The translations under genes were made by a program, and so were the position numbers. The notes below the pieces were generated by a model that saw only the letters and a list, made by a program, of their open reading frames with translations, had not been told where the DNA came from and did not search any database. Shown here in pieces: positions 24,911-59,823 of a stretch of 64,000 nucleotides of DNA; the stretch's first letter is position 1, and each line of letters begins with the position of its first letter. Origin of the DNA: Amaranthus tricolor (Eukaryota; Streptophyta; Magnoliopsida; Caryophyllales; Amaranthaceae); NCBI RefSeq assembly GCF_026212465.1, contig NC_080052.1, positions 13,361,934 to 13,425,933 on the forward strand, given 5' to 3'.

Positions 24911-25084
24911 TTAAGCAGCCGGTGCATAATCATAAACTCCATTATCATCGTCATCATCCCCATCGTCTTCAAATCTTCTACTAAAATAAACCCCATCATT
25001 GTATTTTGATCTCAAACAATCTTCTTGAAATTTACTTTCATTTATCATCTTCCTAGAATCTGGAACAATCAAAACAATCGACAT
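24911..25084 (-). CDS. IMA: IRON MAN / FE-uptake-inducing peptide (IMA/FEP family), copy A
   Basis: This is a 57-residue intronless ORF from ATG at 25084 to TAA at 24911. It ends GDDDDDNGVYDYAPAA: an acidic run (residues 39-47) then YDYAPAA as the last seven residues, matching the C-terminal signature of plant IMA/FEP peptides. Known members are about 50 residues, lack a secretion signal and bind iron through the acidic residues. They shield subgroup IVc bHLH factors from BRUTUS-type E3 ligases and so raise iron uptake. The N terminus (MSIVLIVP, then basic and acidic residues) is variable in the family. A TATA box lies about 120 bp upstream (25205-25212). The family call rests on the C-terminal motif and its conservation in two further loci here. 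A GTTCCAG acceptor-like site inside the ORF leaves an upstream exon possible. Confidence 0.85.
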   Translation of the reverse strand: MSIVLIVPDSRKMINESKFQEDCLRSKYNDGVYFSRRFEDDGDDDDDNGVYDYAPAA

Positions 25085-25199
25085 TTATAAAAATTTAATT
25101 GAGACGGAATGTATATGTTCCCTTTGAAATTTGTTCAAAAGATTGGTATTGAATGTGATTATGTGCTAAGTTTAGTTTGGTAGGTTTAGCTGCATGATG

Positions 25200-25735
25200 T
25201 TCTACTTATATAGAGGAACCTATGTACTACAAATTAAAAGAGCCACACAAAAGGTAGACATGCTTATACACAAGTAAACACACAATAATTATAAGAGAAA
25301 CACCTTAGAATTGTGCATGGCAAAACATAAAGAGTATAGGGCATGTGGTAATCCTAGATGGCATTACCTTGTCCAACCACATAGGATCTTAAAGGACAAT
25401 TAAACGCACGTTGGCTCGAATTTCTCCTATGTGATTGATACATTGTTGAGAAGTTTAACAATATGACTTAAGATGCCTTTTGATTTTGCAAAAAGTAGAA
25501 AAACATATTGGATTATATTCCTTGTTTTGTTACAAGTGAATATGTAAAATAGCAACTCATCAAAATGATTTTATTTAGTTTTACTTTTTCTTGCTTTTGT
25601 TAGATTTTGTAAAATAGCAAAAAAAGTAGAAAAACATATTAGATTTTTAGTTGATGCTTTTGTTATTTTGTAGTGGTACTTATTCTTGCTTGTTGGGACA
25701 TTCTTTATTACCTAAGTGCGATATAAAATAGCAAC
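25200..25735. repeat. Upstream region of IMA-type gene A, duplicated at 21297-21690
   Basis: The segment is the better-preserved partner of the duplication described at 21297-21690 and includes the gene's TATA box. It also has an internal partial duplication: AAAATAGCAACTCATCAAAATGATT phrases occur near 25545 and 25725, and AAAAAGTAGAAAAACATATT occurs near 25490 and 25620. Confidence 0.65.
25205..25212 (-). promoter_or_regulatory. TATA box of IMA-type gene A
   Basis: On the minus strand the sequence is CCTCTATATAAGTAGAACAT, about 120 bp before the ATG at 25084. A start site about 30 bp downstream would leave a leader of about 90 bases. An E-box (CATGTG, 25342-25347) lies 130 bp further upstream and is also present in the duplicated upstream copy (21421-21426). 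Confidence 0.65.
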
Positions 25736-26501
25736 TCATCAAAATGATTCCCTTAATATGGGTTCCTACATGGTCATATTTTCATATTAATATTTATATT
25801 CGTGATTGTTGTTATCTGGAAAATAAAGTGCGACCTAATCAGTTAATACACTATTAAATTAATGAATTTGAAATGACTATATATAAGAAGTTGTTATTAA
25901 TCATTTCTCTACATTTTTAACAGTATTTTTGATGTCATTTCAAAAAAATAAAATAAAATAGTATTTATGATGATATGAGTAATATCGAATTCCATTATTG
26001 TTATTACAAGCTTATGATAAAACTTTTTTTTCTTTATTATTTCAAAGGAAGTTAATATGTTTAATCTGCAGGTTTCATGAACTGTTGAAGCTAAACTTGT
26101 TAGATTTATGTTATTACAACCTTAAGACATTTGTGAACAACCTAAAATTACAACTGTCCAAATTTTTTAATAGTTACATATTTCCCTAAAAGATCCCACG
26201 GAATACGAAATATAGGGGATAATACATGTAATGAGGATGATACATGTAATTGGTTTTGAAAAGTAAAAATGAAACACTTAATGATTATCATCAAACTCTT
26301 CATAATACTAACAATGATTTGAAAATACACATGAAAGTCATTTACCAAATTTTTATTCTACTAAGTGATTATTTATGGTATAATATTTAGCGTCCTTTTT
26401 ATCTGAAATATTAGAAGAATTGTTCACCTTTTTCTTTCAAAAGTCTTGTATGTGTCTGCATGTGTAAAAGACCTAGTGGTCGGTTGTGCCTGTCTCCTCA
26501 C
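25736..26501. other. AT-rich DNA without a recognised gene
   Basis: Only short, low-complexity ORFs are present. Nothing supports a gene. Confidence 0.5.
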
Positions 26502-26790
26502 AACTCGTTTGGTTGTTGGTACAAAAAGATGATAATGAGAATGATTTGTAATGTAAATTTTCATGAAATGTATCATATTATGCTATGGTAATGAAACGTT
26601 GATCATAAATAGGTTTGTTGTTCACAATTTTTTATTAAATTCTAATACCACATTTTCATATGGAAATGAATTAGAATGAAATTTGCGAAAAAAATAAGAT
26701 GATTGAATGAGAACAAAAATGACCATTTAACTTATCAAGATAGTTTTCCAATACCTTTTCCTCTTAATACCCACTAACAAACGGGTCGTT
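26502..26790. mobile_element. Probable MITE with imperfect terminal inverted repeats
   Basis: The left end AACTCGTTTGGTTGTTGGTA resembles the reverse complement of the right end TACCCACTAACAAACGGGTC. The roughly 290 bp between them has no ORF, and there are smaller internal inverted blocks (CATTTTCATATGGAAATG). The GTTTGGTTGTTGGTA ends recall plant non-autonomous DNA elements. No clear target duplication could be assigned, so the superfamily is open. Confidence 0.4.
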
Positions 26791-26814
26791 AATCATTTTT
26801 CCAATATATGTTGA

Positions 26815-28480: not shown

Positions 28481-29586
28481 TGGATAAAATATTACAAATT
28501 GCATAAGATGCTCTTTGGACTCTTTGGTGTAGGGGTTATTAGTATGACTTGATGATTTATTTTAATTTGGAATCAAAACACAAACTGATTCATTTAATTA
28601 TTACATGTAAATGTTATTTTAACCTCCATAAGTGTATATGAATAGTTGTTGAATGTGTGTATAATAGATGCACTTTACTCATCATTTTTCATAAGCTTGT
28701 GTACTATTTCCTGTTGCTTTCTCCACCTTAAAAGTAATGAGAATATTAGTTTTTTTTTATTTCATACTAGCATACGTGTTGATCTATTGGTGCTCTTGGA
28801 CCAATACTAGAGGAATAACACTTGAAGTTTTGATCATCCACTACTATCATACATACTGTTTGACTTGTGGAAATCACTCAACTAGGGTATGATTGTAACA
28901 TATGCTATATACGCATTAATTTATGCATGAGATTTTATTTTAGATGTACAGAAATATGTTTTTTGCAATTTCGATTTATGCATCTAAATTCTTATAATAT
29001 GTAGATATCATTGAAGATTTATCAAAAACCCAAAAAAGTAGTGTATTGATTTTAATTTTTAGATGAACGATTAAGAAGCAAACTATATTTATTTTACTTT
29101 TCAAAATTAAATACCGTGCATTTTAGGGTTACTAATCTAAATTAACAATGAAAATGGATGCTCGATTTCTACCAAAATTATGCAAAAGCATAAATTCTTA
29201 ATTACCCCACCATGCACCACATAAATTTGACTCTTTGTCCCTAATTGTCAATATTTGGACCAACTTTTGGACTCAAATACAAGCACGTAGCAATTAACGT
29301 GGTTTACCTTTGTCATGCACACACTCTCGTATGTGTTCCAAATTCTGTCACGAGGATACCATTCGTATATCATATGCTACTTTTTCCTTCCTTTATCCCC
29401 TTATATGTACATAAACCATCATCAATCATCCTCTTCAACATACAAAAGGTAGTCCTAACATTAAGGTCTTCACGTTAGAGTGAGATAATTTATATTACTC
29501 CTCTTATTTAGAATTTTTTAATTTTTTTCAACCACTAGTTTAAAATTATTCAAATTTATTTCCTATTTTCTATTTTTTCGAAAATT
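28481..29586. other. AT-rich DNA upstream of IMA-type gene B
   Basis: No gene was recognised. The last 350 bp may hold the promoter of the peptide gene at 29587. It contains TTATATGTACATAAACCATC at about 29401, which could serve as a TATA region and leader start, and two ACGT cores (GCACGTAG near 29283, TAACGTGG near 29297). Confidence 0.4.
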
Positions 29587-29712
29587 ATGAATAGAATTTA
29601 CAAGACTCGTGATAATCTGAAGCCAACTATTTACAAAAATGTTAGTTCGAAAATATTTGAAAGTGACGGAGATGATGATGATGCAGATTATGATTATGCG
29701 CCGGCGGCTTGA
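29587..29712 (+). CDS. IMA: IRON MAN / FE-uptake-inducing peptide (IMA/FEP family), copy B
   Basis: This is a 41-residue ORF from ATG (29587) to TGA (29712). It ends SDGDDDDADYDYAPAA, the IMA/FEP C-terminal signature: G-DDDD spacer, then YDYAPAA at the extreme C terminus. Shared with copy A are FE-x-DGDDDD and the full YDYAPAA. The codons differ (GCG CCG GCG GCT TGA here, GCA CCG GCT GCT TAA in copy A), so the match is kept at protein level. Forty-one residues is at the short end for the family. No in-frame ATG lies upstream before a TAG at 29536, and an upstream exon cannot be excluded. The expected role, by family, is stabilising bHLH IVc iron-response factors. Confidence 0.8.
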   Translation: MNRIYKTRDNLKPTIYKNVSSKIFESDGDDDDADYDYAPAA

Positions 29713-30159
29713 TAGCTTGGTGTTCAATTAGCATGCATTAACTATAACTGAGGAATATCTGATCATAATTAACTCACAGTTATTTAGTAGTTATGGTACC
29801 TACTTGCCGCTTGTAAATTAATTTGAAGAGTAATGTATTTTTGATTGCATAGATATGTTCAGTGATGTGTATGGATTATTTTATGTTTGAGTTCACATAT
29901 TTTCTGGTTGGAAGAGTTTACTTTATGGACTCTCATAGTTTCTGCCTATCCCCTCCGTTATCTCTTTCAACACCAAAATATAATCTTACCTTTTCAACCC
30001 CAAAAATTGGCGTAATATAATAGAGAAGTATAAAAATTTGACATATATTATTATTAACATTATCATATCCAATATATCTCTAATCTATAATTGCTCATAG
30101 CTAAAGATCATGAGTCGACCTCAACATTAAACTGAGATTGTACATTCCTTTATATATTG
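29713..30159. other. AT-rich spacer
   Basis: No gene or element boundary was recognised between the peptide gene and the Copia remnant. Confidence 0.5.
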
Positions 30160-30449: not shown

Positions 30450-31724
30450 CAGCCCGGCAATCGTAACAAGATTTTGACAAATGCTAGTTCTAGATCCAAA
30501 CATCAAAAAGTATACGGGGAAGTCCCTTTATAAAAACATCAGCAACTTGATACCGGGAGCAAACATGAAGAAACCAAACCTCACCGTTACCAACCTTCTC
30601 AAGAACGAAATATATATTCACCTCAATGTGTTTGGTGCGTTGATGTTGCACCGGATTTCCTGATAAATAGACGGCACTGACAATGCCACAATATACCAAA
30701 TTTCCATATAGGACAATCTAACTAAAGTAGCGGTTTTTTAAACCAACAAGAATTAGAAAATAACATTTCCAACATTGTATTTTTGACACTGGAACGCGAC
30801 AAGGTGGGTTGTTTTTTTGACGACCAATAGATCAAATTATCACCAAGAAAAACACAGTACCCAAAGGTAGACCTTCTGGTTTCTGGGCGTCCGCCCCAAT
30901 CAACATCAATATAAATAAGCTTAGCAAGAGATGATTAATATTAGTGTAGACAAAAAGTTAAAGTACCCTGCATGTAGAGTATAATAGGTTAATAGCAGAC
31001 ATACGATCAACTCTATGATCATGCATGGGAAGAGACACCTGCGGAACTGCATATGAGATATAAAGATCAATTGAAAGTAAGATATTGTAGAGTACCAGCC
31101 AACCGTTAATATTTAGTCAGGTCCTCATACAGAATGTCCGCATAGGCACTAAGATTGGGTTTAGTATCTACAAGAGTGTGGCTAGTGCTACAGTTAGACG
31201 TGCTAGCCCGATCAATAATCTCTATTGTAGATTGTTTTTGACATAAGAACAAACCATTAGTATGCGAGTCACATCAACTTCCAAAATATAGCTTAAAGGA
31301 CCTAAACCATTCATAGCAAATTTGTTACCCAAAAGAGTAATGAAATGTGTTCTAAGATGATTAATTGATTCTGTAAGGATTACATCATCAACATATAACA
31401 GAATATAAGCCATATCAGCCCTCTATCTTTAAATAAACAATGAGTGATCAAATTTATAATTAGAAAATCCAATAGTAGTCATAAACTCTGTAAAATGCTG
31501 ATAATAAGCTCAAGGGCCATGTTTAAGACCATAAAGAGACTTGTTTAGTAAGCAAACATAATTAGGACGACTTATATCACCGAACTCTATGGGTTGATGC
31601 ATATAGATTGTTTCGTTTAGATAGTCATGTAAGTGAGCATTCTTCACATCCAATTCATGGATGGAACAAGACTAAGAAATGTACAAATGGTGCCTGGTTT
31701 CACAGCCGGACTAAATGTCTCACC
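30450..31724 (-). pseudogene. Copia pol remnant (reverse transcriptase and RNase H), outer part of a nested pair
   Basis: Several frames on the minus strand give clear Copia fragments. In the reverse transcriptase there is LDVKNAHLHDYLNETIYMHQ (with a catalytic Asp), LLNKSLYGLKHGP, and MAYILLYVDDVILTE (the YVDD box). RNase H follows with RRSTFGYCVFLGDNLIYWSS and VQHQRTKHIEV...SRYQVADVFIKGLP. Stops and shifts separate them, so it is long dead. The reading continues across the Sirevirus insertion into 41855-43440, which holds the N-terminal reverse transcriptase and the integrase. Confidence 0.85.
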
Positions 31725-31729
31725 ACAAT
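31725..31729. other. Target-site duplication, left copy (ACAAT)
   Basis: ACAAT immediately precedes the 5' LTR and is repeated at 41850-41854 directly after the 3' LTR. A 5 bp duplication is the Copia norm. Removing the insert and one ACAAT rejoins the interrupted Copia reverse transcriptase. Confidence 0.92.
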
Positions 31730-32346
31730 TGTTGGCCTCTTAAGGTTTTGATGATGACTTCACTTGTAAATAAACAAACATATTTTTAGAGATTGTTTTG
31801 TAGGTATATATCCGATTTAATGTGAATCGTTGATGAAGCCTATGACTTGATTCGTGGAAGATGTATGTGTCTCAAATATCCAAGAAGTTGGGAAATTGCT
31901 CTGGAAAACAGTCTGCTGTTCCTAGAGCTAAAGTTCTGACGAATGTTGAAGCTGGAGACAGTACACTGTTCCTACGTAGCAGGTCTGAAGAATAGCATCG
32001 ACTAAAAAATTGCGAATTAATTATTTTCTGTTTTTAAGTTGATGTAATGGTTTAGAATTAATTTAATTGCTTAAATTAATTAGTAAGTTAATTGGCAAAT
32101 CTATTTTTAGGTTTTCTAAAAATAGCCCAAGACTTTTTCTTAATTAGATTTAGATCTCCTATTTTTTAGGATCTTATGTTTTAAACTCCTATGCTATTTT
32201 TAGCATTAAGGAAACTGATTTTTCCTTGAGCAAATAACAGCCGGACACGCATAATTCCACCACCTTTTGTTTTGAGAACGTGGGGGTAGTGGAGGTATGT
32301 GTGAGATAGTGGACGTTATGCTTATGATAACTGCTGGCTGTTCCCT

Positions 32347-32356
32347 CTATAAATAG
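32347..32356 (+). promoter_or_regulatory. LTR TATA box
   Basis: CTATAAATAG sits in the middle of the LTR and marks the U3/R border region. The same box is in the 3' LTR at 41164-41173. Confidence 0.75.
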
Positions 32357-32509
32357 AAGGGACTTTGCTCGAATCAAAAATCAATCTTTTTAGGATTCAA
32401 GAGTGTCCATTAAAGGGAGATCATCTTAAGAAAAATATTTTCAGTTTTCCAATGCCAATTAATTTATTATATTTTTCTTAAGTAATTATTTTAATTCTTA
32501 TCCTCTTGA

Positions 32510-32657
32510 GAAATGGCCTTGTAAGGGTAATTGAGTGTTTTATTGTAATTAAACTTATGGGAAGTCTAAGGGAATAGAGAAGAGAAATGGCCTTGTAAAG
32601 GGTAATTGAGTGTTTTGTTGTAATTAGACTTATGGGAAGTCTAAGGGAATAGAGAAT
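32510..32657 (+). repeat. 74 bp tandem duplication within the LTR
   Basis: The block GAAATGGCCTTGTAAGGG... starts at 32510 and again at 32584 with a few changes, including one added A. Both copies occur in the 3' LTR too, so the duplication predates this insertion. It lies downstream of the TATA box, in transcribed R/U5 sequence. Confidence 0.85.
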
Positions 32658-33040
32658 AGAAACGTGAGAAGAGAAGAGAAGAGAAGAGAAGAGAAGTAGG
32701 CCTAAGTAGAGAAGCTTTGAGTAAAGCGTTTAGAGAATTGAGAAGCTTCAAGTGAAGCAAAACATTGTTATGTGTAATTGTAATTGATTGCCTTAACATA
32801 GTGAGAATTTTGAAATCCCGGGGGGTCGTGGTTTTTCCTTCTTATTAGGCCAAGAAGGTTTCCACGTAAAAATCCTTTTCTTCTTTTATTATTCTTTTCG
32901 TTTTTAAGTTTAAGTTTTTGTTCTATACTTATTATAATTCCGCAAAAATTAGAAGCAAAAAATCTTAAACCTACTACACAACAATTCACCCCCCCCCCCC
33001 CCTCTTGTTGCATTCGATCATCCATTAGTATTTCTACAAT

Positions 33041-33052
33041 TGGTATCAGAGC
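33041..33052 (+). other. Primer binding site for initiator tRNA-Met
   Basis: TGGTATCAGAGC follows the 5' LTR after two bases. It is complementary to the 3' end of plant initiator tRNA-Met, the standard Copia primer. Confidence 0.92.
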
Positions 33053-33107
33053 CCTGTTCCTCATTTAATCAGGAAACCCTGAGAGCAGTATCCTGTTCCC
33101 TGGAAAG

Positions 33108-34283
33108 ATGTTCAAGATGAACGAGCGCATGGAAGAGGGGTACTCCACACAAAGGCCACCCATGTTCGATGGGAAATTCTATACCTACTGGAAAAATAGA
33201 ATGGAAATCTTCATAAAGGCCGAAAACTATCAAGTTTGGAGAGTCATTGAAATTGGAGACTTTGAGGTGACGACCATCAACTCCAACAATGAAGCTGTTC
33301 CAAAACCAATCACTGAATATGAAAAAGAAGATTTTCAAAAGATGGAGATGAACGCTCTTGCTATCAAGTTACTTCACTGTGTGCTTGGTCCAAATGAGCA
33401 CAATCGTATTATGGGTTGCAAAACCGCTAAGCAGATTTGGGACCTGCTGGAAGTTACCCATGAAGGTACTAGTGAAGGCGAAGCTGAAACTGAAGCGCCA
33501 ATAGAGGAAGAAACCGCAAATCTGTGTCTCATGGCATCTCATGAAGAGTCTAAGGAAAAAGAGGTAATGTCTTCTACTCCATCTCCTAAACAACTGTCTA
33601 ATTTAAGTAAGAATAAATTAATCAAATTGCTGTTAGAGACACAAGAAAAGTTGAATGAAAAAACAGCTAAGTGTCTCCAAATTGAGAAAGACCTTAAGTT
33701 AAGTAAAGATCATATCTCATACCTAAATTCCTTTAGGATCGATGTGCAAAGTAGATTTTTTGATTTGTTAGATAAGGATATCATCTTAAAAGAACAATTG
33801 GAGAAATTAAAACAGGATTTCATTATTCTTAATATTGAAATGAATCAAAACAAATTGATAGGATTAAGTAAAGATGCAAACAATATATCTACTCACATGG
33901 TTAGCACTGAATTTCAAAAGTTGAAGTCAAAATTAGAATCCTACGAAATTGAAAATGAAAATTTGAAAAATAAAATAAACTTAAGAGGAAAAGGGAAAAT
34001 CAATGAAATTCCCAAATGGATTCTAAATGCTAAAACCAAAAGTAAAGAAGGTCTAGGCTATATGAGGAATGATAAAAAGAAAAAGTTCTATGTAGATCTC
34101 CCTAGTAGTAAAATATGTTCCTTCTGTGGTAAAATTGGACACCTAAAACATCAATGTATAAAGAGAGAACAGCATGTCAAAGCAAATAAAAATTATGTCG
34201 AACGTATATGGATTAAGAAATGTGATTCAAATATTGTCGACAAGGAACCCAAGGATGAATGGGTTCCTGCACCTAACCACTAA
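33108..34283 (+). pseudogene. gag of the Sirevirus-type element, with internal deletion
   Basis: A 391-codon frame runs from ATG (33108) to TAA (34281-34283). The N terminus (RPPMFDGKFYTYWKNRMEIF) is the Copia gag start. Near residue 120 the frame passes QIWDLLEVTHEGT and then goes straight to the acidic SEGEAETEAPIEEE. In relatives the rest of the UBN2-type gag domain, roughly 100 residues, lies at this point, so it appears deleted in frame. A coiled-coil-rich segment follows, and then one zinc knuckle CSFCGKIGHLKHQC. The frame is the same as pol; the TAA may be a decayed codon or a gag/pol boundary stop. Confidence 0.88.
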
Positions 34284-37200
34284 TTTGCTTTGCAGGTTCA
34301 AGTGAGGGGGAACAACTCATGGTATCTCGACAGTGGGTGTTCCAAGCATATGACGGGTGATAAATCTAAATTTCTCTCACTTGAAGCCCATGATGGGGGA
34401 ACAGTAACCTTCGGTGACAACATGAAGGGTGAGATAATCGCCAAAGGAAAGGTTGGAAGGTCTATTTCCCATGCCATTGATAATGTATTTTTAGTCGAGA
34501 ATTTAAAACACAATTTGTTAAGTATTTCTCAATTTTGCGACAAAGGTAACTCTGTTAAGTTTACTTCTGAAAAATGCATAATTTCTAGGAACAGTACAGG
34601 AGACCCTGTGCTGGAGGGAATCAGAAAAGGGAACACCTATGTGGTGGACCTGGACACTGTTCCCAGAAACAGTCTAACGTGTTTAAGTGTTATTGAAGAA
34701 GACCCACTTCTTTGGCACAAGCGTCTAGGTCATGCTAGTTATTCATTGATTAACACTTTAAGATCAAAAGACCTAGTAAGAGGATTACCTGCAATAAAAT
34801 TCCTTAAAAATGAAGTTTGTGATCCTTGTGCTAAAGGGAAACAAGTGCGGTCATCCTTTAAATCAAAGAACGTTGTGACTACCACTAGACCATTAGAATT
34901 AATTCATATGGATTTATGTGGACCAATGAGAACACAAAGCCGTAGTGGCAAAAAGTATGTGTTTGTTGTTGTTGATGATTATAGTAGATTCACGTAGACC
35001 TTATTTTTGGCAAGCAAAGATGAAGCTTTTGATGAGTTTGTTTCCTTTGCTAATAAAACACAAAAATCTACCAATAATCAAATTGTTCACATTAGGTCTG
35101 ATCATGGAAAAGAATTTGAAAATTCAAACTTCATGAATTATTGCAATGAACATGGCATAAATCACAATTTTTCCGCACCTAGAACACCACAACAAAATGG
35201 TGTGGTAGAAAGGAAAAATAGGACTTTAGAAGAAATGGCAAGGACCATGTTGATTGCTAGCGGTCTACCTAGGAATTTTTGGGCAGAAGCCGTTAATACT
35301 GCATGCTATACTTTGAATCGTGTACTAATTAGACCAATCACTTCAAAGACACCCTATGAATTGCTCAAAGGTGTTAAACCAAATATTTCCTATTTTCGTG
35401 TGTTTGGATGCAAATGTTTTGTACATGTAAATGGAAAACGAAATTTGGGTAAATTTGATGAAAGAAGTGATGAGGCAGTGTTTCTTGGTTATTCATCACA
35501 AAGCAAAGCTTACAGAGTATATAATAAGAGAACAATGAGTGTAGAAGAGTCTGTTCACATAATCTTTGATGAAACTAACTTTTCAACAAGTGAACAGGAA
35601 ACAAGTAATATTAAAATAGGTCTTGCAAATTTGGAAGATGAAGATGAAGGAATAAAAGTGCAAGATCGAGGAACAGCAAGCGAACAGTCGATACAAGAAG
35701 AGGCAGAAGAAACTGACCAAATCCAGGAACTGCCAGTACAACAGGATCAGCAGACTGTTCCCAATCCAGCTGTTCCCACAGATGAGCAAAATGATCCAGT
35801 AGCTGAACAGAATGTCAATCAAGTTGCTGAACAAGAACATGCTACTGTTCCTTCAAGAGAATTTGTGCCTAAACCTTGGAAGTATCAAAGATATCATCCT
35901 CTTGATTCAATTGTAAGTGATATAAATAAGGGGACACAAACTAGATCTCAATTGAGAAACTTTTGTGCACACTTTGCATTCCTATCATCACTTGAACCTA
36001 AAAATCACGAGGAAGCTTTAAAGGATTCCGATTGGATAGTTGCCATGCAAGATGAATTAAATGAGTTTGAAAGAAATAAAGTGTGGCACTTGGAACCCAA
36101 ACCGAAAAACAAGAAAGTTATTGGTTTGAAATGGGTATTTCGGAACAAGCTTGATGAGCATGGAATAATTGTTAGAAATAAAGCTAGACTCGTGGTTAAA
36201 GGTTACAATCAACAAGAAGGTATTGATTATACCGAGACATTTGCTCCAGTAGCAAGGTTAGAGGCCATTAGAATTTTAATTTCTTTTGCTGCATTTATGA
36301 ATTTTAAACTATATCAAATGGATGTGAAATGTGCTTTTTTGAATGGTTATCTTGATGAAGAAGTTTTTGTGGAACAACCCCCAGGTTTTGAAAATACCTC
36401 TTGTCCTAATCATGTCTACAAGCTTGACAAAGCCCTATATGGCTTGAAGCAAGCTCCTAGACAATGGTACGAAAGACTTTCAAAGTTTTTGATTTAAAAT
36501 AACTTTGTAAGAGGAAAAATCGACAAAACCTTGTTCTTTAAGAATAAAGGTTCTAATATCTTGTTTGTTCAAATTTATGTTGATGATATTATTTTTGGTG
36601 CTACTAATGACTTGTTATGTAAAGAATTTGCTAACCTTATGGGTACAGAATTTGAAATGAGCATGATGGGAGAATTAAATTTCTTTCTTGGTTTGCAAAT
36701 TAAACAAACTGAAAATGGTATCTTTATTCATCAACAAAAATACATTAAAGAACTTCTTAAGAAATATGGACTAAACAATTCTAAATCCAACCACACACCT
36801 ATGGCTACCAATGTTAGACTAGATGAAGACCTAAATGGAACTAACGTAGATCAAACCATGTATAGAGGCATGATAGGTTCTTTATTGTATCTAACTACAA
36901 GTAGACCTGATATTTCTTTTAGTGTTGGTTTATGTGCTAGATTTCAATCAAGTCCTAAAGAATCACATCTCACGGCAGTAAAGAGAATTTTGAGATATTT
37001 GAAGGGAACAGACGACTTGTCCCTATTTTATCCTAAAAGTGATGTTTATGATTTAAAAGGTTTTAATGATGCAGATTATGCAGGTGATCTTGTTAATAGA
37101 AAAAGTACATCAGGTATGGTACAATATCTTGGCTCATGTTTAGTTTCATGGAGTTCCAAGAAACAAAATACAATTGCATTATCCACTGCAGAAGCTGAAT

Positions 37201-37520
37201 ACGTAGCAGCAGCAGCTTGTTGTTCCCAAATGCTTTGGATAAAACAGCAACTTAGAGATTTTGGTATTAAAGTTGAATGCATCCCTATTTATTGTGATAA
37301 TACTAGTGCCATATGTATATCTAAAGATCCAGTGCATCATTCACGTGCTAAACATATACACATTAGACATCATTTTCTTAAGGATAACGTAGAACACAAA
37401 AATATTGTACTGAAGCATGTTAACACAAATGAACAAGTTGCAGATATTCTGACCAAACCACTTCCTAGGGAACAATATGAAAAGATGAGATTGGAACTTG
37501 GTATGATCAAGCTCCACTAA
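34284..37520 (+). pseudogene. pol of the Sirevirus-type element, broken by two in-frame stops
   Basis: One frame continues from gag. It covers aspartic protease (WYLDSGCSKHMTGD, 34320 on), the integrase zinc region (LWHKRLGHASYSLI), the integrase core ([32 protein letters not shown]), reverse transcriptase ([29 protein letters not shown]) and RNase H (DADYAGDLVNRKSTSG; STAEAEYVAAAACCSQ), ending ADILTKPLPREQYEK. Stops are TAG at 34995-34997, where Trp is usual, and TAA at 36495-36497. No frameshift was found. Domain order (integrase before reverse transcriptase) is Copia. As written it cannot give a full polyprotein. Confidence 0.93.
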
Positions 37521-38049
37521 AGTTAGTTGCATATATTTCCCATTGAAGCATCATGAAAATGAAGAGGTCAGGAATCAATCTCAAAATCTTGATTGAAAAT
37601 CAATTATTGCATGGATCAGGTAAACACATAATAAAGTTTGTACTATGAATGTTCTTACGTTTGCATGTTGTTAATTCGAACAGACCAAAGCAATATGTTC
37701 ATTATTTTCTCCATAATATTTCATAATATCATAATTCATTTTGTTCTTGAAAAATTATTTTATTTTATTTTGATTTCACATCGTTTTATATTATATCATC
37801 ACATTGTTTGGAAATTTGTACAGTCAACTTAAAATTAAAAATAATGGGAAATTTTTAAAAAACACACAATCCTTCCATATCTAATGCATTGATGAAAAGG
37901 CTTTGATGAGATGGGACGTTTGGTAACCGTCAACTCTCTTTAAAAAGCCCTTACTACATCACAATCACTCAAACCGTCATCCTTCTCCTTCCTCACAAAC
38001 AGTCACAAGAAACCGTCCTCCTTCTTCCTCAATCCTTCAAAACGCAAAA
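37521..38049 (+). other. Spacer between pol and the extra ORF of the Sirevirus-type element
   Basis: AT-rich and without an ORF of note. It ends with a pyrimidine- and CTTCCTC-rich leader just before the ATG at 38050, including TCATCCTTCTCCTTCCTC. A splice acceptor or leader for a subgenomic message could lie here; no specific site is supported. Confidence 0.5.
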
Positions 38050-39717
38050 ATGAAAACTCCAAAATCAAGATCAGGAAAGAAAGCACCCACATCCCACCAA
38101 ACCATCCAGCCTACACCCTTAAACATTGTTCATCCATCCCCATTGCTAAAAGATGCACCATTACCATCACCACCACAAGAAACCTCTGACAACATTCGAC
38201 CAAAACGCAAATCATTCACACCAAAAAGTGAATCATCATCCCAAACTGCCAAACGTTTGAAGCAAGTTGACCCTAACTGTGCCGAGGAGGTTGCTAAGGA
38301 GATGTCTGTTGGATTTGGGGTCGACAAATACTGGTATGACTCTACTTACTTTCCACAACTTCATAACATTTTGAAATTTCAAGAATGGGAGGTTTTAATG
38401 ACTGAATATAGTTGTAATTCCATCTTCCCAAACATCATGAGAGAGTTTATTTCAAACTTTTCAAATGACTGTGGTATGTGTTCCAGTGTGGTTAGGAACA
38501 TTAAAATAGAGTTTAACAGCGCTTTGTTGGCAGAATGGTTTAAAATTTCGAATGTAGGGTTTGATACATACAGTGTTGGTGCTAAGATAGTTTTCTCTGG
38601 GATAAATGAAAAAACAATCTTTAAGTTTTTAGGGGTTGAACAGAAAAGGGGTAAAATCAGTCACAATGTGTTGTCCCCATTGCATAAATTACTTTATAAT
38701 GTAGCACGAAGATTCATCTTGCCCCGAAACTCCAAGAGGAGTGAGGTGAGTCTGCGTGATGCAACTCTGATTTATTGCATGGACAATAAAATAAAAATCA
38801 ATTTTCCATCTTTAATGATTTCACATTTATCCGACTGTATAGAGAAGAAGAATGTTGTGGGCTATGGGGGGCTGTTAACATGGATTTTTCGTAAATTTGG
38901 GGTACCATTGGATGGGCTGGAGTTCCCAATGGGACCAAACATGAAGATTGGTGCAAGATGTCTGAAAAACTTGCATTTGAAAGTAAATGATGAAGGAGTA
39001 TTAATAAACGAATTAGAAGAAGTAGTTTTTGTTGGTTCTGATGATGAGGAAGTAGAAGAAGAAGAAGAAGAGGAGGTTGAAAAAGAAATAAAAATAAAGA
39101 AAGAAAAAGGAATTGAAAAAGAAAAAGAAAAAGAAAAGGAAGAAGAAGAAAAAGAAGAAGTAAAACAAGGGCCTGTTCCCAGTGAAGCAGAAAACAAGGG
39201 GGAACAGGAAGAGGAGACTAAAGTTGAGGGGGAACAAGGAGAAAAGGAAGGAGATTCCAGTGATAAGGAGGTCGTGATTGCTAAGCTGAGGAAGGGTAAA
39301 GCCACTTAGAGGAAGAGTAGGAGGCTTGCTTCAAAGGGTAAGGCAGTAAAGGTTAATGATGTTACTTCAAAAACCATTCCTGAGCCTACTTCATATGACC
39401 CTCCTTCTCCCAAGCCAACCACTCCACCACCAACTCAAACCTTATCACCACCTCCATCACCCATTCACTTCACACCACCACCATTTCCATCCTCTCCTGG
39501 TGTTGGTTGTGCTGACCCTACTCCTACAGCATCTTCAGACTCCATCCTTTCAAAACTCCTTGATCTACAGTCTCAATTAATTGCATTTCAGGATGAGACT
39601 CGTGTCTCGCTAGCTTCAATTGTGGATCAGCTGAACCAAATGGAACAATGCCTTGGTGCCAAGCTGGACACAGTGGAGGTGCAGACTGAGTATATTGATG
39701 AAGAGACTGCCCCTTAA
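38050..39717 (+). pseudogene. Extra 3' ORF of the Sirevirus-type element (env-like position), one in-frame stop
   Basis: From ATG at 38050 the frame is open to TAG at 39307-39309, then open again to TAA at 39715-39717, about 555 codons in all. Segments in order: a basic, Pro/Ser-rich N terminus with KRKSFTPKSE (possible nuclear signal); a globular part (residues about 90-310) that resembles the 'putative plant transposon protein' domain found in plant retroelement ORFs; a Glu/Lys run (about 325-400); after the stop a Pro-rich stretch (PPPTQTLSPPPSPI); and a C-terminal helix with coiled-coil character (LLDLQSQLIAFQDETRVSLA). No signal peptide or clear membrane span was seen, so an envelope function is not supported. 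The TAG is followed by AGG, not the readthrough context described for SIRE1. Confidence 0.75.
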
Positions 39718-40546
39718 CCCTCTCCCTCTGTTTTTAAAAGAACTTATTGGTTGTATTACTTAACAAAAAATTTCTCTTTACCTTGTACCATCCGGGGTAC
39801 ATTGTAGTTGTAATCTTGAACAATTGCTACTTTTCATTGTTTTTATTTTCTATGGTCTGTGGATATTAGCTCTATGCAGGTTTAATCATTGTTCATAGCA
39901 CTTGCTTTTATTATTGTTGTTTGTTGCTTTCATCACTAACAAATCTATATGGTTTGTGCTGAGATTTGATAACTCCCAATTCTTTTTGATTGATGTCAAA
40001 AGGGGGAAGATTATTGCACAAACTTAACAGGAGCAGTGAATACACAGTTACATATCTTGTTGATTTATATTGATTCTTATGAATAATATGTGTGCTGCTG
40101 TGTTTATGCTAGTTTAATGATCATCTGTGTTGCTAAGTTTGTTGAAGTTCTCATGAAGTCCTCATGAATATTTGATTCTGTGAAAATACTTAATAAGTTA
40201 TGTTTATTATTATTATTAGGTTTATTATAGTTCTATTATGTTAGCTTATATTATGTTAGTTTTATTATATTAGGTTATTATGTTATGTTAGTCTTTATCT
40301 ATTTCCGTTTAACTTAGTTTATTTCATTTAGGTTTTAAGTTAATTAATTTTGAAAACTTTTGAAAAATATTTGATATTTTAGAGTAAACTGTTTGTTTAT
40401 GAATGCTTGGTAAATTATATTCTAACAAGTTGATTTGCTAAGTTAATTAGAGTTACTTTAATCTCTAGTATGCTCTATGAATTTTGTTTTACTCTATTTC
40501 ACTTAAGTTTGTTTATAAAGTTTGCCATCATCAAAAAGGGGGAATT
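39718..40546 (+). other. 3' non-coding region with two polypurine tracts
   Basis: The functional polypurine tract AAAAAGGGGGAA (40533-40544) is next to the 3' LTR. A second AAAAGGGGGAAG lies at 39997-40008, about 540 bp upstream. Multiple polypurine tracts before the 3' LTR are described for Sireviruses. Around the LTR junction CATCATCAAAA and TTTTGATGATG form an inverted repeat (about 40526-40577). Confidence 0.8.
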
Positions 40547-41849
40547 TGTTGGCCTCTTAAGGTTTTGATGATGACTTCACTTGTAAATAAACAAACATAT
40601 TTTTAGAGATTGTTTTGTAGGTATATATCCGATTTAATGTGAATCGTTGATGAAGCCTATGACTTGATTCGTGGAAGATGTATGTGTCTCAAATATCCAA
40701 GAAGTTGGGAAATTGCTCTGGAAAACAGTCTGCTGTTCCTAGAGTTAAAGATCTGACGAATGTTGAAGCTGGAGACAGTACACTGTTCCTACGTAGCAGG
40801 TCTGAAGAATAGCATCGACTAAAAAATTGCGAATTAATTATTTTCTGTTTTTAAGTTGATGTAATGGTTTAGAATTAATTTAATTGCTTAAATTAATTAG
40901 TAAGTTAATTGGCAAATCTATTTTTAGGTTTTCTAAAAATAGCCCAAGACTTTTTCTTAATTAGATTTAGATCTCCTATTTTTTAGGATCTTATGTTTTA
41001 AACTCCTATGCTATTTTTAGCATTAAGGAAACTGATTTTTCCTTGAGCAAATAACAGCCGGACACGCATAATTCCACCACCTTTTGTTTTGAGAACGTGG
41101 GGGTAGTGGAGGTATGTGTGAGATAGTGGACGTTATGCTTATGATAACTGCTGGCTGTTCCCTCTATAAATAGAAGGGACTTTGCTCGAATCAAAAATCA
41201 ATCTTTTTAGGATTCAAGAGTGTCCATTAAAGGGAGATCATCTTAAGAAAAATATTTTCAGTTTTCCAATGCCAATTAATTTATTATATTTTTCTTAAGT
41301 AATTATTTTAATTCTTATCCTTTTGAGAAATGGCCTTGTAAGGGTAATTGAGTGTTTTATTGTAATTAGACTTATGGGAAGTCTAAGGGAATAGAGAAGA
41401 GAAATGGCCTTGTAAAGGGTAATTGAGTGTTTTGTTGTAATTAGACTTATGGGAAGTCTAAGGGAATAGAGAATAGAAACGTGAGAAGAGAAGAGAAGAG
41501 AAGAGAAGAGAAGTAGGCCTAAGTAGAGAAGCTTTGAGTAAAGCGTTTAGAGAATTGAGAAGCTTCAAGTGAAGCAAAACATTGTTATGTGTAATTGTAA
41601 TTGATTGCCTTAACATAGTGAGAATTTTGAAATCCCGGGGGGTCGTGGTTTTTCCTTCTTATTAGGCCAAGAAGGTTTCCACGTAAAAATCCTTGTCTTC
41701 TTTTATTATTCTTTTCGTTTTTAAGTTTAAGTTTTTGTTCTATACTTATTATAATTCCGCAAAAATTAGAAGCAAAAAATCTTAAACCTACTACACAACA
41801 ATTCACCCCCCCCTCTTGTTGCATTCGATCATCCATTAGTATTTCTACA
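40547..41849 (+). repeat. 3' LTR of the Sirevirus-type element (1303 bp)
   Basis: It differs from the 5' LTR at AGAGTTAAAGATCTG (two changes), TCCTTTTGAG, AATTAGACTT and AATCCTTGTCTTC, and has 8 rather than 14 C in the terminal C tract. It is followed by the ACAAT duplication at 41850-41854. Confidence 0.93.
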
Positions 41850-41854
41850 ACAAT

Positions 41855-54546: not shown

Positions 54547-54740
54547 TGAAGAATAAGGATGAAAACTGTGTTTTTTTGTCTTAATTTCCATTCTGATTAC
54601 AATCCTAATATATACAACTCTTTAGGAACTAATTAGGGAAATACAAGACTTGGAAAACCAGAAATTCCCTAAATACATTTGTCTAATTTGAGTAATCATA
54701 ATATTCACTGAATCATAATATTCTACGATATATTTCCACA
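54547..54740 (-). repeat. 3' LTR of the minus-strand Copia
   Basis: It runs on the plus strand from TGAAGAATAAGG to TTTCCACA. It differs from the other LTR at ATTACAATC/ATTATAATC, TTAGGGAAAT/TTAGGAAAAT and TCTACGAT/TCTAAGAT. Confidence 0.92.
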
Positions 54741-54752
54741 CTCCCCCTCAAG
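54741..54752 (-). other. Polypurine tract
   Basis: The minus strand reads CTTGAGGGGGAG immediately before the 3' LTR, the plus-strand primer site in Copia elements. It also holds the pol stop region. Confidence 0.85.
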
Positions 54753-56696
54753 TTAGGTTATGGGATTCCCAATACCTAACTTGGTTAAAGTAGTTTCGAA
54801 GACTTCAGCGGAAACGGCTTTTGTGAGAATGTCAGCTAATTGATCCTCTGATCTTACAGCGGAAACAATTCGATCATGCTTCACCGGGTTTTCTGAGATA
54901 TCAATAGCTGCTTTATTATCACAGAATAACTTGCAAGCTCCTGTTGGTGGAAAGTCGAGTTCGTATAAGAGTTTTCTTAGCCATAGGATTTCTGTTATTC
55001 CCTTTACTACTCCTCTGAACTCTGCTTCTGCACTTGATAATGCAACTACTTTATGTTTCTTACTCTTCCAAGTAACCAAGTTACCCCCTACAAGGGTGAA
55101 GTATCCAGATGTAGACTTCCTGCTATCTCGATCACCTGCCCAGTCAGCATCCGTGTAGGCAACAAGGTCAAGATGATGGTTTTTACCATAGAAGACTCCT
55201 CTGTTACTTGTGCCTTTCAAGTATCTCAAAATTCTTATCACTGCTTCCATATGTGGAATTTGTGGTAAGTGCATGTATCGACTTACAACCCCAACTGCAT
55301 ATGATATGTCAGGTCTAGTGTGGGATAGATAGATCAATTTGCCCACCAGTTTCTCATACTTTTCTTGGTCAGCTGGTTCTCCTCCTGGTGTTGTCTGCAA
55401 CCTATGATTAGCAACAATTGGTGTTTCCGCTAGTTTGCAATCAAGCATGCCTACTTCTGCTAATAGATCTAAGACATATTTCTTTTGATTAATGAAAATT
55501 CCCTTCTTGGATCGCAAAACTTCTATACCAAGGAAGTACTTTAAGCTCCCCAAATCCTTCATCTCAAACTCCATAAATAGTTTCTTCTTGAGCTCTTTTA
55601 TCTCCCTTTCATTGTTTCCGGTTATTACCATGTCATCTACATAAATGATAAGACACGTGATCTGACTCCCGTCCTTCTTCAGGAATAGGGTATGGTCGGA
55701 ATGGCTTTGTTCATACCCAAATTTCTTCATTGCTAAGGTAAACTTACCGAACCAAGCTCTCGGAGACTGTTTCAAGCCATACAGTGCCTTTTTAAGTCTA
55801 CATCCTTCTCTTGGAGCAAATTCATCTGAAAAACCTGGCGAGGCATGCATATACACTTCTTCTTCAATCTCGCCATGTAGGAAAGCGTTCTTTACATCGA
55901 ACTGATAGAGGGGTCAATCTTTATTTGCAGCTATGGAAAAAATGACCCTGATAGTATCTATTTTGGCAACCGGAGAGAAGGTTTCGGAGTAATCAATCCC
56001 GTAAGTTTGTGTATATCCTTTTGCCACAAGACGAGCTTTGTATCTCTCAATGGTTCCATCTGCATGATACTTTATTGTAACGACCCATTTGCAGCCTACT
56101 GGTTTCTTTTCGGCAGGTAGCATACACTTCTCCCATGTGCTATTTTTCTTTAAAGCCGAGATCTCATCTATCATAACCTCTTTCCACCTTGGATTTCGGA
56201 GAGCTTCTTCAGTATTTTTAGGCAGAGAGCTTGAGTATAGGTTGGTCTGGAATGCCACAGCTGTTTGTGCTAAGTTACTTGTCTCTCGGTTAATAGGATA
56301 TCGAGATCTCTGTGATTCAAACTCTGGATCATACATTCTTCGAGGAATGCCCCTTTTGCTCCTTGGAGGTAATTGGTATCTACAGGGTGAATTAACAATA
56401 CCAGATATGTCATCATTAGTTTGAGGTTCAGGTTCAGTTAATACCTCTTGAGGCTCACAGGCAACCCCTTGATCAAGAGATGCTTCAGACACGGTAGGAA
56501 GGGGCTGAGAAGAAAGTAAAACTATGTTTTCCGTGGCAATATCTGTGGGATTACCTACTTGCTCTTTTTGATCCAAATCATCAGTTACAGAATATGTAAA
56601 CCAGCTCAAGTCATCACATGTAGTCTCCCCCTGAGGACGAGGCTGGGAGTAAAAGTAGGAATGCTCAAAGAAGTCACAATCCATTGTAGTATACAT
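54753..56696 (-). pseudogene. Reverse transcriptase and RNase H of the minus-strand Copia
   Basis: One frame runs from about 56696 to the stop at 54753, with one TGA (55914-55916) where Trp is usual. Visible motifs: ALKKNSTWEKCMLPAEKKPV, ERYKARLVAKGYTQTYGIDY, QFDVKNAFLHGEIEEEVYMH (first catalytic Asp), [28 protein letters not shown] (YVDD), then RNase H with YTDADWAGDRDSRKSTSGYF, SSAEAEFRGVVKG and FCDNKAAIDISENPVKHDR. After HDR the sequence goes straight to IVSAVRSEDQLADILTKA. The block usually present between these (about 20 residues) seems to be missing. Not functional. Confidence 0.92.
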
Positions 56697-57646
56697 TTTT
56701 TTTGAGTTGGATCATAACAGCGGTATCCCTTCTGATTAGTACCATAGCCCACAAAGATACACTTAACAGCCCGGGGTTCAAGTTTGGTTCGAGTAGGTTT
56801 GGGGAGATGGACATACACAACACACCCAAAAACCCGAGGAGGTAAAGAGTGAAAAAGTGGGATAGTAGTGTGAGTATGAAGGACTTCCAAGGGGGTTCTG
56901 AAGTTAAGAATTTTTGAGGGTAGACGATTTGTGAGATAGGTAGCAGAGGCAATTGCTTCAGGCCAAAAATAGGGTGGGACATGGGCTTCAAACATAAGGG
57001 CTCGACTCATTTCAAGGAGAGTACGATTTTTCCTTTCAGCTATGCCATTTTGTTGGGGTGTGTGGGAACAAGAAGTTTGATGAAGGAGACCATGGGTGGT
57101 AAAGAAATTCATCATGTGTTGGTTCATGTATTCCCCCCATTATCCGAGCGGAGTATTTTAGGCTTAGCATTAAATTGCGTGATAATCATATTATAAAACT
57201 TGACAAAGACATCAAAAACCTCAGATTTGTGTTTCAAGAAATATATCCAACACATTCTAGTACAATCATCAATAAATGAAACAAAATACGAGTAGTTGTG
57301 TTTTCCAAACACAGGAGCAGGGCCCCAAACATCAGAATGTATCAAAGTAAACGGTTCACTACTATGAGTTAAACTAGGAGAATAAGAATGTTTGTGACTT
57401 TTTGCAAGAACACATGCTTCACAGTCCAAAATTACAGTACTTTTAGCTAATGACGGAAAAAGACGTTGTAGATACCCCAAAGATGGATGACCTAGACGTC
57501 GATGCCAGGTCCGTAACTGATGATTAGGGAATTCGTGAGCAAGCAAAGTGTGACCCTTTTGAATCGCCTCGTCCACATAGTACAAGCCGTCTCGTTTAGT
57601 ACCATGCCCAATAATCCTCCCGGTCTAAGCATCCTGTACAACACAA
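56697..57646 (-). pseudogene. Integrase of the minus-strand Copia, frameshifted
   Basis: The zinc region (TWHRRLGHPSLGYLQRLF; LDCEACVLAKSHKHSY) and the first part of the core (LIHSDVWGPAPVFGKHNYSY; KILRSDNGGN) lie at 57124-57585. A shift in a G6 run at about 57130-57135 breaks the frame. The core resumes at 57127-56700 with HTPQQNGIAERKNRTLLEMS and YFWPEAIASATYLTNRL, ending GYRCYDPTQKK. A second shift in an A8 run (56698-56705) separates it from reverse transcriptase. A TAG at 57625-57627 interrupts the linker after protease. All breaks are in homopolymers or single codons, so decay is moderate. Confidence 0.9.
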
Positions 57647-59188
57647 TCAGAAGAAGTCATAAGCACAGTACAATTTAATTCCCCGAGTCAATTGACTAAT
57701 AGATAATAACTTATGAGATAAGTCAGGAATTAAAAGACAATTATTTAATTTTAGGGACGGAGAGATAGAAACGGGCCCAGTTTGATCAACATTCACACAT
57801 TCCCCATTTGCCGTTTGGATATAGGTGCGGGTTTTAGGATGGGTGGATAGGAGATCATGAGGGTCAAATGTCATACTATCCGTAGCCCCACAATCAAATA
57901 TCCACTGAGATGAAATCGGTTTACACAGCAAGCTAACTCCTTTTGGTTTTATTTTATGGGTTGTGGGATAGTGGGCCGGTTGAGTGTTGGGTGAGGGAAT
58001 TTGGGCCGGTTGTGTTTTGGGTTTTAGGGTGTTTTTTAGGGTTAGGGTAAGGGTACTATAAAAGGTCCCCTTTTGGAAAGTTTTGGTTTGTTCCCCTTCT
58101 CCTTTTCTCCTTTCTGGGCCGTTTTCTTCTTCCTCTGCGATCTGTTCACCTGTATCACCATTCTCGCCTTTCATTCTGTGGGTTGGTTCATCAATGATAT
58201 CGGGAGAGTGAGAAGCACTGGTGGCCATGTTAGCCTTGCCGCCGGTGCTGTTGATCGGAGCCTTGGTGGCGGCTTTCCGTTGTCGGTGTTCTTCCCACCA
58301 CTCCGGGTAGCCAATGATTTTAAAGCAACCCTCCTTTATATGTCGGCTTCCTCCACAGTGACTACACCTGAGGTGAGTCCTGTCCTCCATTTCACACCGG
58401 AATGATGGATTTGACCGGTGATGTTTGACGGCCAACCCACTCCCAATCTCTGAGGGGTTTTTTCCCGATGATGAAGCGTGAATCATTATTCCACGCCTTA
58501 ATACTTCTCGTCTGATTGTGGCGTATGCCATATCCACTGTTGGAAGAGGATCAAGGTTCAGTAAGTCTTTCTTCTCTTTGTCAAATGTTTCATTTATTTC
58601 GGCCAAAATTTGGGAAAGGCGTTGTTTCTGGATGTAAGTGTTAAAAATGGTGATGTCCTCATCATGTACCATCGGGTTTGGTTGCCGTCGATCTATTTCT
58701 TTCCAAATTGTGGTCAATTTTCCATAAAAGAACTCTAATGGATCTTGGTTCTGTTTTATGTTATTCACCTGTGAACTCAGATCAAAGATCTGGAGTTCGT
58801 CCCTTCCACTGCTCAACAAGACTTCAATTCCCTTCCATAAGTCCTTTGCAACTGTGTAATCTAGAAACTGATTTATGAGTTCAGTGTCTATATTTGAGGT
58901 AATCCATGACAAGATTATTGAGTCTTTTTGTTTCCATGTTTTGTGATTTGGATCTGTAATGTTGGGAGGGTCGTCAATGACGTGGCTGAGACGACCTCTG
59001 CATTCCAAGGCTATCTTCATCATTTTACACCAAGTTGTGTAATTTTGATAGTTTAATTTTTCGGCTAATTTTAAGTTTGGTGAAATGGTTTCAAGGTTTG
59101 TGTTTGGTTTTTGCATCTGCTGGAACATTCTAAACATGTGTTCCATTTGTTCAATGGTTACAATTTGGTTTGGGTTTGTTTCTGCCAT
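57647..59188 (-). pseudogene. gag and protease start of the minus-strand Copia
   Basis: The natural start is probably ATG at 59186-59188 (MAETNPNQIVTIEQ), about 70 bases after the primer site; the open frame extends further up only through non-coding leader. The gag core contains NYTTWCKMMKIALECRGRLS and DLSSQVNNIKQNQDPLEFFY. A zinc knuckle-like CSHCGGSRHIKEGC is followed by FKIIGYPEWW. The protease begins WIFDCGATDSMTFDPHDL, with D-C-G in place of the usual D-S/T-G. The frame is lost at a GGGG run near 57690, after LLSISQLT, where one extra G explains the shift. Confidence 0.9.
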
Positions 59189-59256
59189 TGTTACAGGTAA
59201 GTTTTTAGGGTAGATGATGATAACCAATGGTGTTGCCGGTCCCCGAAAACAACTTT

Positions 59257-59269
59257 GGCTCTGATACCA
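59257..59269 (-). other. Primer binding site for initiator tRNA-Met
   Basis: The minus strand reads TGGTATCAGAGCC directly inside the 5' LTR. Confidence 0.9.
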
Positions 59270-59463
59270 TGAAGAATAAGGATGAAAACTGTGTTTTTTT
59301 GTCTTAATTTCCATTCTGATTATAATCCTAATATATACAACTCTTTAGGAACTAATTAGGAAAATACAAGACTTGGAAAACCAGAAATTCCCTAAATACA
59401 TTTGTCTAATTTGAGTAATCATAATATTCACTGAATCATAATATTCTAAGATATATTTCCACA
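59270..59463 (-). repeat. 5' LTR of the minus-strand Copia
   Basis: It is the same length as the left LTR (194 bp) and adjoins the primer binding site at 59257-59269. It is followed outside by TAATCTAACG. Confidence 0.92.
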
Positions 59464-59658
59464 TAATCTAACGTTTATATCAATTTAGTTATAAAGATTA
59501 TAAGGTTTCTGTTTTGCAAATATTACGAACATATAAAAGTGATGACTAAGGGAGCTACTACATTAGCAACTATATGATATAGATAGAATGCCGAAACCAA
59601 TATTATCTTAGGTAGCACCATAATAATAACTCTCTGGCAACAAATTATCGACATTTTC

Positions 59659-59823
59659 TTATGCTGCAGGTGCATAATCATAAATTGTATAATCACGATC
59701 TTCATCATCATCATCATCATCCCTATCAGGCTCTAGTCCCTTATAGAAATTACGATCTTCACTTCTATAACATAACAGATGATTGATATTAGCATCATAA
59801 TCACGCATATCTACTATATCCAT
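59659..59823 (-). CDS. IMA: IRON MAN / FE-uptake-inducing peptide (IMA/FEP family), copy C
   Basis: This is a 54-residue ORF from ATG (59821-59823) to TAA (59659-59661). It ends DYTIYDYAPAA after six consecutive Asp, a Glu and an Asp (residues 35-42). The last seven residues equal copies A and B, with different codons (GCA CCT GCA GCA TAA). Compared with them the acidic run is longer and a DRDYTI insertion separates it from YDYAPAA, so C is the most diverged copy. The N terminus (MDIVDMRDYDANI) shares little with A or B. An out-of-frame ATG seven bases upstream opens a short uORF. A TATA-like box lies at 59887-59899, a Stowaway MITE at 59954-60225 and a G-box at 60301-60306. Expected role by family: iron-deficiency signalling through BRUTUS and bHLH IVc proteins. 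Confidence 0.82.
   Translation of the reverse strand: MDIVDMRDYDANINHLLCYRSEDRNFYKGLEPDRDDDDDDEDRDYTIYDYAPAA

What the first reader, a model, noticed from the sequence alone, without database searches (positions are those of the whole stretch)
24911..59823. Three unannotated IRON MAN-type peptide genes within 35 kb
Loci at 24911-25084 (minus), 29587-29712 (plus) and 59659-59823 (minus) each encode 41-57 residues with an Asp-rich run and end exactly in YDYAPAA. At the last five codons the bases differ (GCA CCG GCT GCT TAA; GCG CCG GCG GCT TGA; GCA CCT GCA GCA TAA) while the protein stays the same. That is the mark of purifying selection, not of a copied repeat. The signature is that of IMA/FEP peptides, which control iron uptake in flowering plants. 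All are below usual ORF cut-offs and sit among transposons, so annotation pipelines probably missed them.
Basis: partly seen in the sequence, partly recalled or inferred. Interest (0 to 1): 0.9.

Follow-up and report, generated by a model that had tools for sequence, protein, structure and literature searches.

The report
Plant iron-hunger peptide gene cluster
A stretch of plant chromosome carries three tiny genes for IRON MAN peptides, known signals that switch on iron uptake in flowering plants, beside decayed copies of one of them; it is a sound new example of a known gene family rather than a new kind of thing.

Summary
Three ORFs (57, 41, 54 codons) with an Asp run end in YDYAPAA-stop at the stated coordinates, and no others exist in the window; simulated sequence gave none in 200 runs. 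Relatives with a visible organism name are all flowering plants, and one is deposited as IRON MAN 3 of Lotus. In the 520-Mb genome I found six intact ORFs of this kind: A, B, C here, an inverted pair on contig C9, and a YDFAPAA variant on C3. A frame-shifted copy of A lies 80 kb away and a relic of its upstream DNA lies at 21272-21688. Two loci encode BRUTUS-type ligases, the known target. Best reading: a birth-and-death cluster of IMA/FEP genes whose peptides act as decoys for BTS/BTSL. Such clusters are already known. B has a clear relative elsewhere, A a weaker one, C none that is significant; C also has a stretched tail, an upstream MITE-like insert and upstream ATGs. Transcription, iron response and annotation status could not be tested. 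New members of a known family.

The parts
24911..25084 (-). Gene A: IMA/FEP-type ORF, 57 aa, ends YDYAPAA-stop
   Evidence: relatives P0015 (Beta vulgaris, 27 of 59 columns identical) and P0052
25185..25734 (-). DNA upstream of A; TATA-like site 128 bases before the ATG; occurs again only at a relic in the window and at a dead copy 80 kb to the left, as far as the search sees
21272..21478 (-). Relic of the upstream DNA of A (70% identical); a TA-rich microsatellite stands where the coding part would be
21591..21688 (-). Second piece of the same relic (76% identical to 25640-25734)
29587..29712 (+). Gene B: IMA/FEP-type ORF, 41 aa, ends YDYAPAA-stop
   Evidence: P0029 is identical at 31 of 38 aligned residues, N-terminus included
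59659..59823 (-). Gene C: IMA/FEP-type ORF, 54 aa, ends YDYAPAA-stop; five more residues than A between Asp run and tail; upstream ATGs at -42, -18 and -7
59951..60227 (.). MITE-like insert with inverted ends, between a TATA-like site at -413 and gene C (ends read by eye)
60301..60306 (.). CACGTG G-box 483 bases before gene C; possible bHLH site, untested

Best explanation
[quoted passage not shown] They belong to a birth-and-death cluster: three intact genes, one frame-shifted copy and one upstream relic over about 115 kb. By inference from Arabidopsis, iron shortage induces them; the short acidic peptides use the YDYAPAA tail to occupy BRUTUS-type E3 ligases, of which this genome has two candidate loci, so that subgroup IVc bHLH activators are spared and iron uptake is turned on. 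Shown here: the ORFs, their family, further copies, the ligase loci. Inferred: transcription, induction, binding, any division of labour.
For: Exact ORFs and tails; none in 200 simulations; 5 exact tails in the genome against 0 for the control and a sixth YDFAPAA member; plant homologs including IRON MAN 3 of Lotus; 164 of 165 held sequences carry the motif [YF][DNE][YFH]AP; B and P0029 identical at 31 of 38 residues, 0 of 1000 shuffles as good by N-terminus; A N-terminus related to P0052 (0 of 1000) and Beta P0015 (5 of 1000); a duplicate of A broken by indels and stops while A is open; BRUTUS-type loci; deletion of YDYAPAA abolishes FEP3/IMA1-BTSL1 interaction (PMC9226616, passages); decoy mechanism (PMC10167411, part 1 of 4; PMC10032465, passages).
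Against: No RNA or iron-response data. The N-terminus of C has no significant partner among nine tested, and its tail spacing is unusual. A, B and C share nothing beyond the tail: N-termini match no better than shuffles (919, 627 and 355 of 1000). The relaxed tail pattern also hit its control once. The RING match at C3 is just below the Pfam cut-off and the piece between CHY and RING matched no family. The tail was the reason the ORFs were noticed, which biases counts of synonymous change.
Confidence: 0.92

Rival explanations
1. The ORFs are IMA genes by descent, but one or more of them, C above all, is decaying and merely still open.
For: Two dead copies of A prove that loss goes on in this cluster. 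C has a stretched tail, a MITE-like insert upstream, three ATGs in its last 42 leader bases, a copia element ending 195 bases past its stop, and no significant relative by N-terminus.
Against: C is open, and its seven tail residues are exact although three of its tail codons differ from those of A. A and B have relatives elsewhere by N-terminus.
Confidence: 0.2
2. The ORFs are carried by transposons or are parts of them.
For: Two copia-type elements, a satellite array and MITE-like pieces surround them.
Against: No ORF lies inside a recognised element. Flanks of A, B and C are alike only at the ORF ends, apart from the overlap of the 3-kb flanks of A and B. The upstream DNA of A was found only on this part of C6, and that of B once in the genome; that search skips very common words, so it is not proof of rarity.
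Confidence: 0.02
3. Chance ORFs in AT-rich DNA with a GAT repeat.
For: They are short, and Asp runs can come from GAT repeats.
Against: 0 tails in 200 simulations; 5 against 0 in the genome-wide control; homologs across flowering plants.
Confidence: 0.005

Closest known systems
IMA/FEP peptides of Arabidopsis thaliana (eight genes; IMA1 = FEP3)
   Same: About 50 residues, Asp-rich C-terminus, last seven residues YDYAPAA as in FEP3/IMA1 (PMC10167411; PMC9226616). Neighbouring genes too: IMA1, IMA2 and IMA8 are AT1G47400, AT1G47395 and AT1G47401 (PMC9465050).
   Different: N-termini unlike; no Arabidopsis sequence was aligned here. C has a longer stretch between Asp run and tail. Function untested.
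IRON MAN 3 of Lotus japonicus (P0043)
   Same: 53 aa, EGDGDDGDDDDDGGYDYAPAA tail; found by the profile of A, B and C at E=5e-3.
   Different: Its N-terminus has no significant likeness to A, B or C.
Beta vulgaris BVRB_8g195390 (P0015), hypothetical protein
   Same: 54 aa; 27 of 59 alignment columns identical to A over its whole length; finds A best in this genome at E=3.1e-6.
   Different: Not characterised; N-terminal likeness is modest (5 of 1000 shuffles as good), so orthology is not proven.
P0029, 40-aa protein of an unnamed Logan contig
   Same: Identical to B at 31 of 38 aligned residues, N-terminus included.
   Different: Source organism unnamed; DNA not available, so no dN/dS.
Neighbouring IMA-type genes in tomato and kiwifruit
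   Same: Tomato Solyc12g006750 and Solyc12g006770 are close by tag and were the most strongly iron-deficiency-induced genes in leaves (PMC6734453, passages); Actinidia rufa has three consecutive tags, Acr_13g0012900, -910 and -920.
   Different: Closeness is read from tags; their DNA was not examined.

Membership tests
IMA/FEP peptides | Small protein of about 50 residues | tested here: met
   57, 41 and 54 aa; definition from PMC10167411
IMA/FEP peptides | Conserved Asp-rich C-terminal consensus of about 17 residues | tested here: met
   Met for A and B. C has the Asp run and the tail but five more residues than A between them, so it fits less well
IMA/FEP peptides | Last seven residues YDYAPAA, needed for BTSL1 binding in FEP3/IMA1 | tested here: met
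   Exact in all three; requirement from PMC9226616, passages
IMA/FEP peptides | Sequence homology to named members | tested here: met
   Profile finds Lotus IRON MAN 3 at E=5e-3 among 115 hits that include the query proteins
IMA/FEP peptides | Kept in related species beyond the tail | tested here: inconclusive
   B: P0029, 31 of 38. A: P0052 and P0015, weaker. C: none of nine segments at 10 of 1000 shuffles or fewer
IMA/FEP peptides | BTS/BTSL-type ligase in the same genome | tested here: met
   Hemerythrin over the cut-off at C3 and C8, CHY finger at both; at C3 zinc ribbon and a RING match just below its cut-off; RING and ribbon at C8 read by eye
IMA/FEP peptides | Induced by iron deficiency | not testable with these tools
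   No expression data
IMA/FEP peptides | Binds BTS/BTSL and promotes iron uptake | not testable with these tools
   Needs a bench experiment

The most novel reading that the evidence does not exclude
The cluster is an old array in which each surviving gene has its own unrelated N-terminus and its own upstream DNA, so A, B and C may be specialised decoys for different BRUTUS paralogs, tissues or stresses; C, with its stretched acidic spacer, could be a variant that engages the ligase or iron differently.
Probability: 0.15. Interest if true: 0.45.

Novelty: new member of a known kind. Interest (0 to 1): 0.28.

Why it matters
IMA peptides are strong levers on plant iron content, and genes this short are easy to miss in annotation. 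At least six intact copies located in one genome, with a frame-shifted copy and an upstream relic as a yardstick for lost constraint, give direct candidates for work on iron in this plant and show how such clusters turn over.

Tried and rejected
Chance and low complexity: rejected by simulation and the genome-wide control. Transposon cargo: not supported; flanks of A, B and C are alike only at the ORF ends, and the upstream DNA of A and B was not found dispersed (the search skips very common words). A recently copied repeat: rejected, N-termini and flanks do not match. Pfam gave nothing for A and B and a 0.43 hit to an unrelated family for C; solved structures gave only a 0.97 hit to an unrelated enzyme. 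A shared promoter motif: A, B and the relic share CATGCACA, but A and B share 18 eight-mers in all, so this was dropped. The C to P0028 link looked fair with the whole protein (z 4.6 on 100 shuffles) but was not among the pairs at 10 of 1000 shuffles or fewer when only N-termini were compared. Literature searches on beet, spinach, quinoa or amaranth were swamped: the 10 listed of 8,388 and the 5 listed of 4,733 papers held no 'iron man', so nothing follows. Single-protein search with A found only itself and P0004. No structure was predicted: a lone model of a short acidic peptide would say little.

Full report
Observation. YAPAA occurs nowhere else in the six frames of the window. In 200 order-2 Markov simulations of the 45.3 kb right of the satellite array no YAPAA-stop, APAA-stop or YDYAP arose; runs of four Asp arose 0.055 times per simulated sequence.

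Family. A profile of the three finds 115 proteins at E<=10, the three themselves included. A second profile (C, a 47-residue piece of P0028, B, P0029) finds 168 at E<=1, of which 120 were listed. Every organism name visible in the two listings is a flowering plant; many rows carry no name. One is deposited as IRON MAN 3 of Lotus japonicus (P0043, E=5e-3). Of the 165 sequences held, the three window proteins included, 164 carry the motif [YF][DNE][YFH]AP, 131 end in APAA and 117 end in YDYAPAA. IMA/FEP peptides have about 50 residues with a conserved Asp-rich C-terminus (PMC10167411, part 1 of 4 of the text read). They share a 17-residue C-terminal consensus, and FEP3/IMA1 without its last seven residues YDYAPAA no longer interacted with BTSL1 (PMC9226616, passages read).

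The genome. The window is G000:C6:13361934-13425933 of a genome of 519.85 Mb in 45 contigs. The exact DNA pattern for YDYAPAA-stop occurs five times, against none for the reversed control: A, B, C and an inverted pair on C9, about 16858325-16858486 (minus) and 16862287-16862448 (plus). The members of the pair differ at one base of the 162 coding bases and are 99.4% identical over 1,742 aligned bases. One of the two proteins equals P0130 from public data. A relaxed pattern gives six places against one for its control. The sixth, on C3 at about 21031377-21031544 (minus), is a 55-residue ORF ending EGDDDDDDSYDFAPAA. So at least six intact ORFs of this type exist; members with other tails, or with an intron in the tail, would be missed. 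Protein searches of the genome with C, Beta P0015 and A gave no further intact copy; the search with B did not complete.

Dead copies as a yardstick. The DNA upstream of A (25185-25734) matches, as far as the search sees, only contig C6: itself, a relic in the window (21272-21478 and 21591-21688, 70% and 76% identical) and a place 80 kb to the left at 13306489-13307223. That place carries a copy of gene A with 25 of 163 aligned coding sites changed, a 13-base insertion, a 3-base insertion and a 1-base deletion in the tail, and in-frame stops; upstream of it 52 of 378 aligned sites are changed. In the relic a TA-rich microsatellite stands where the coding part would be. So a copy free of constraint breaks at modest divergence, while A, B and C, far less alike among themselves, are all open. 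In the seven tail codons A, B and C need at least five changes by my count, all synonymous; with 15 of 59 non-stop single changes synonymous, the chance without constraint is about 0.001. The tail is why the ORFs were noticed, so that number is biased, and I lean more on the dead copy and on the relatives.

Relatives. B and P0029 (unnamed Logan contig) are identical at 31 of 38 aligned residues, and their N-termini alone give z 15.5 with 0 of 1000 shuffles as good. The N-terminus of A is related to P0052 (0 of 1000) and to Beta vulgaris P0015 (5 of 1000). The N-terminus of C has no partner at 10 of 1000 or fewer among the nine segments compared. Between A, B and C the N-termini match no better than shuffles (919, 627 and 355 of 1000 as good) (all; 45 pairs were compared, so 5 of 1000 is modest). 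The best named match of A being Beta suggests, but does not prove, a plant of the beet family or its order. The sequence sets hold other short contigs for A (6, longest 2,885 bases), B (2, 2,944) and C (2, 714); whether any is RNA is not known.

Partner. Two loci encode hemerythrin-domain proteins over the Pfam cut-off (C3:28393598-28394080 and C8:25762333-25762614). A CHY zinc finger lies beside it at both. At C3 Pfam also gives a zinc ribbon and a RING finger, the latter at 26.1 bits against a cut-off of 27.3; the piece between CHY and RING matched no family. RING-like and ribbon-like pieces can be read by eye at C8. This is the BRUTUS layout (recalled). The likely target of IMA peptides is therefore present.

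Mechanism. In Arabidopsis IMA/FEP peptides, induced by iron shortage, compete with subgroup IVc bHLH factors for BTS/BTSL and so spare those activators from degradation (PMC10167411; PMC10032465, passages). I infer the same here. Not shown: transcription, induction, binding. A has a TATA-like site 128 bases before its ATG, and the C9 pair a similar one near -130 (read by eye).

Doubts about C. It has five more residues than A between Asp run and tail, ATGs at -42, -18 and -7 in other short frames, a MITE-like insert at about 59951-60227 between a TATA-like site at -413 and the ORF, and a copia element that ends 195 bases beyond its stop. It may be a diverged member or one on its way out.

Known clusters. 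Arabidopsis IMA1, IMA2 and IMA8 have the neighbouring tags AT1G47400, AT1G47395 and AT1G47401, and IMA4 and IMA6 are AT1G07367 and AT1G07373 (PMC9465050, passages). Tomato Solyc12g006750 and Solyc12g006770 are close by tag (PMC6734453, passages). Actinidia rufa has three consecutive tags. Clustering is therefore usual in this family. Lotus has eight IMA genes, and two of them act in nodulation (PMC10825120, passages).

Verdict. The finding is right in observation and, as far as it can be tested, in interpretation, and it is biologically ordinary: new members of a known family. Added here: at least six intact copies in the genome, two dead copies, the BRUTUS-type loci, and the caution about C.

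Noticed in passing
window 72-18691: Blocks of a 169-base satellite unit, 86-88% alike within blocks, in a higher-order arrangement with larger units also repeated; the IMA cluster lies on both sides of it.
   Followed up: partly
window 31729-41850: Copia-type LTR element, plus strand, LTRs 99.2% identical, 5-base flank repeat ACAAT by eye, with an extra 419-aa ORF at 38050-39309 that matches PF20167 (Transposase_32).
   Followed up: partly
window 54547-59463: Copia-type element, minus strand, 194-base LTRs 98.5% identical, no matching flank repeat seen; ends 195 bases past the stop of gene C.
   Followed up: partly
window 30478-31422: Fragments of a decayed copia-like reverse transcriptase / RNase H on the minus strand, read by eye from the ORF list.
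   Followed up: no
window 20664-21210: Long TA-rich microsatellite with interspersed CA/TG steps, standing where the coding part of the relic of A would be.
   Followed up: partly
window 19354-19477: Palindromic element rich in TTTGCTGCGG repeats (81.6% self-complementary), probably a small transposon piece.
   Followed up: no
L007 and L008 (genome C9:16858325-16862448): Two nearly identical IMA-type genes in head-to-head orientation about 4 kb apart, a recent inverted duplication.
   Followed up: partly
L028 (genome C3, about 21031377-21031544): IMA-type ORF ending YDFAPAA instead of YDYAPAA.
   Followed up: partly
L020 (genome C6:13306384-13306422): A second short copy of the Asp-run end of the dead gene A, just beyond its break.
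   Followed up: no
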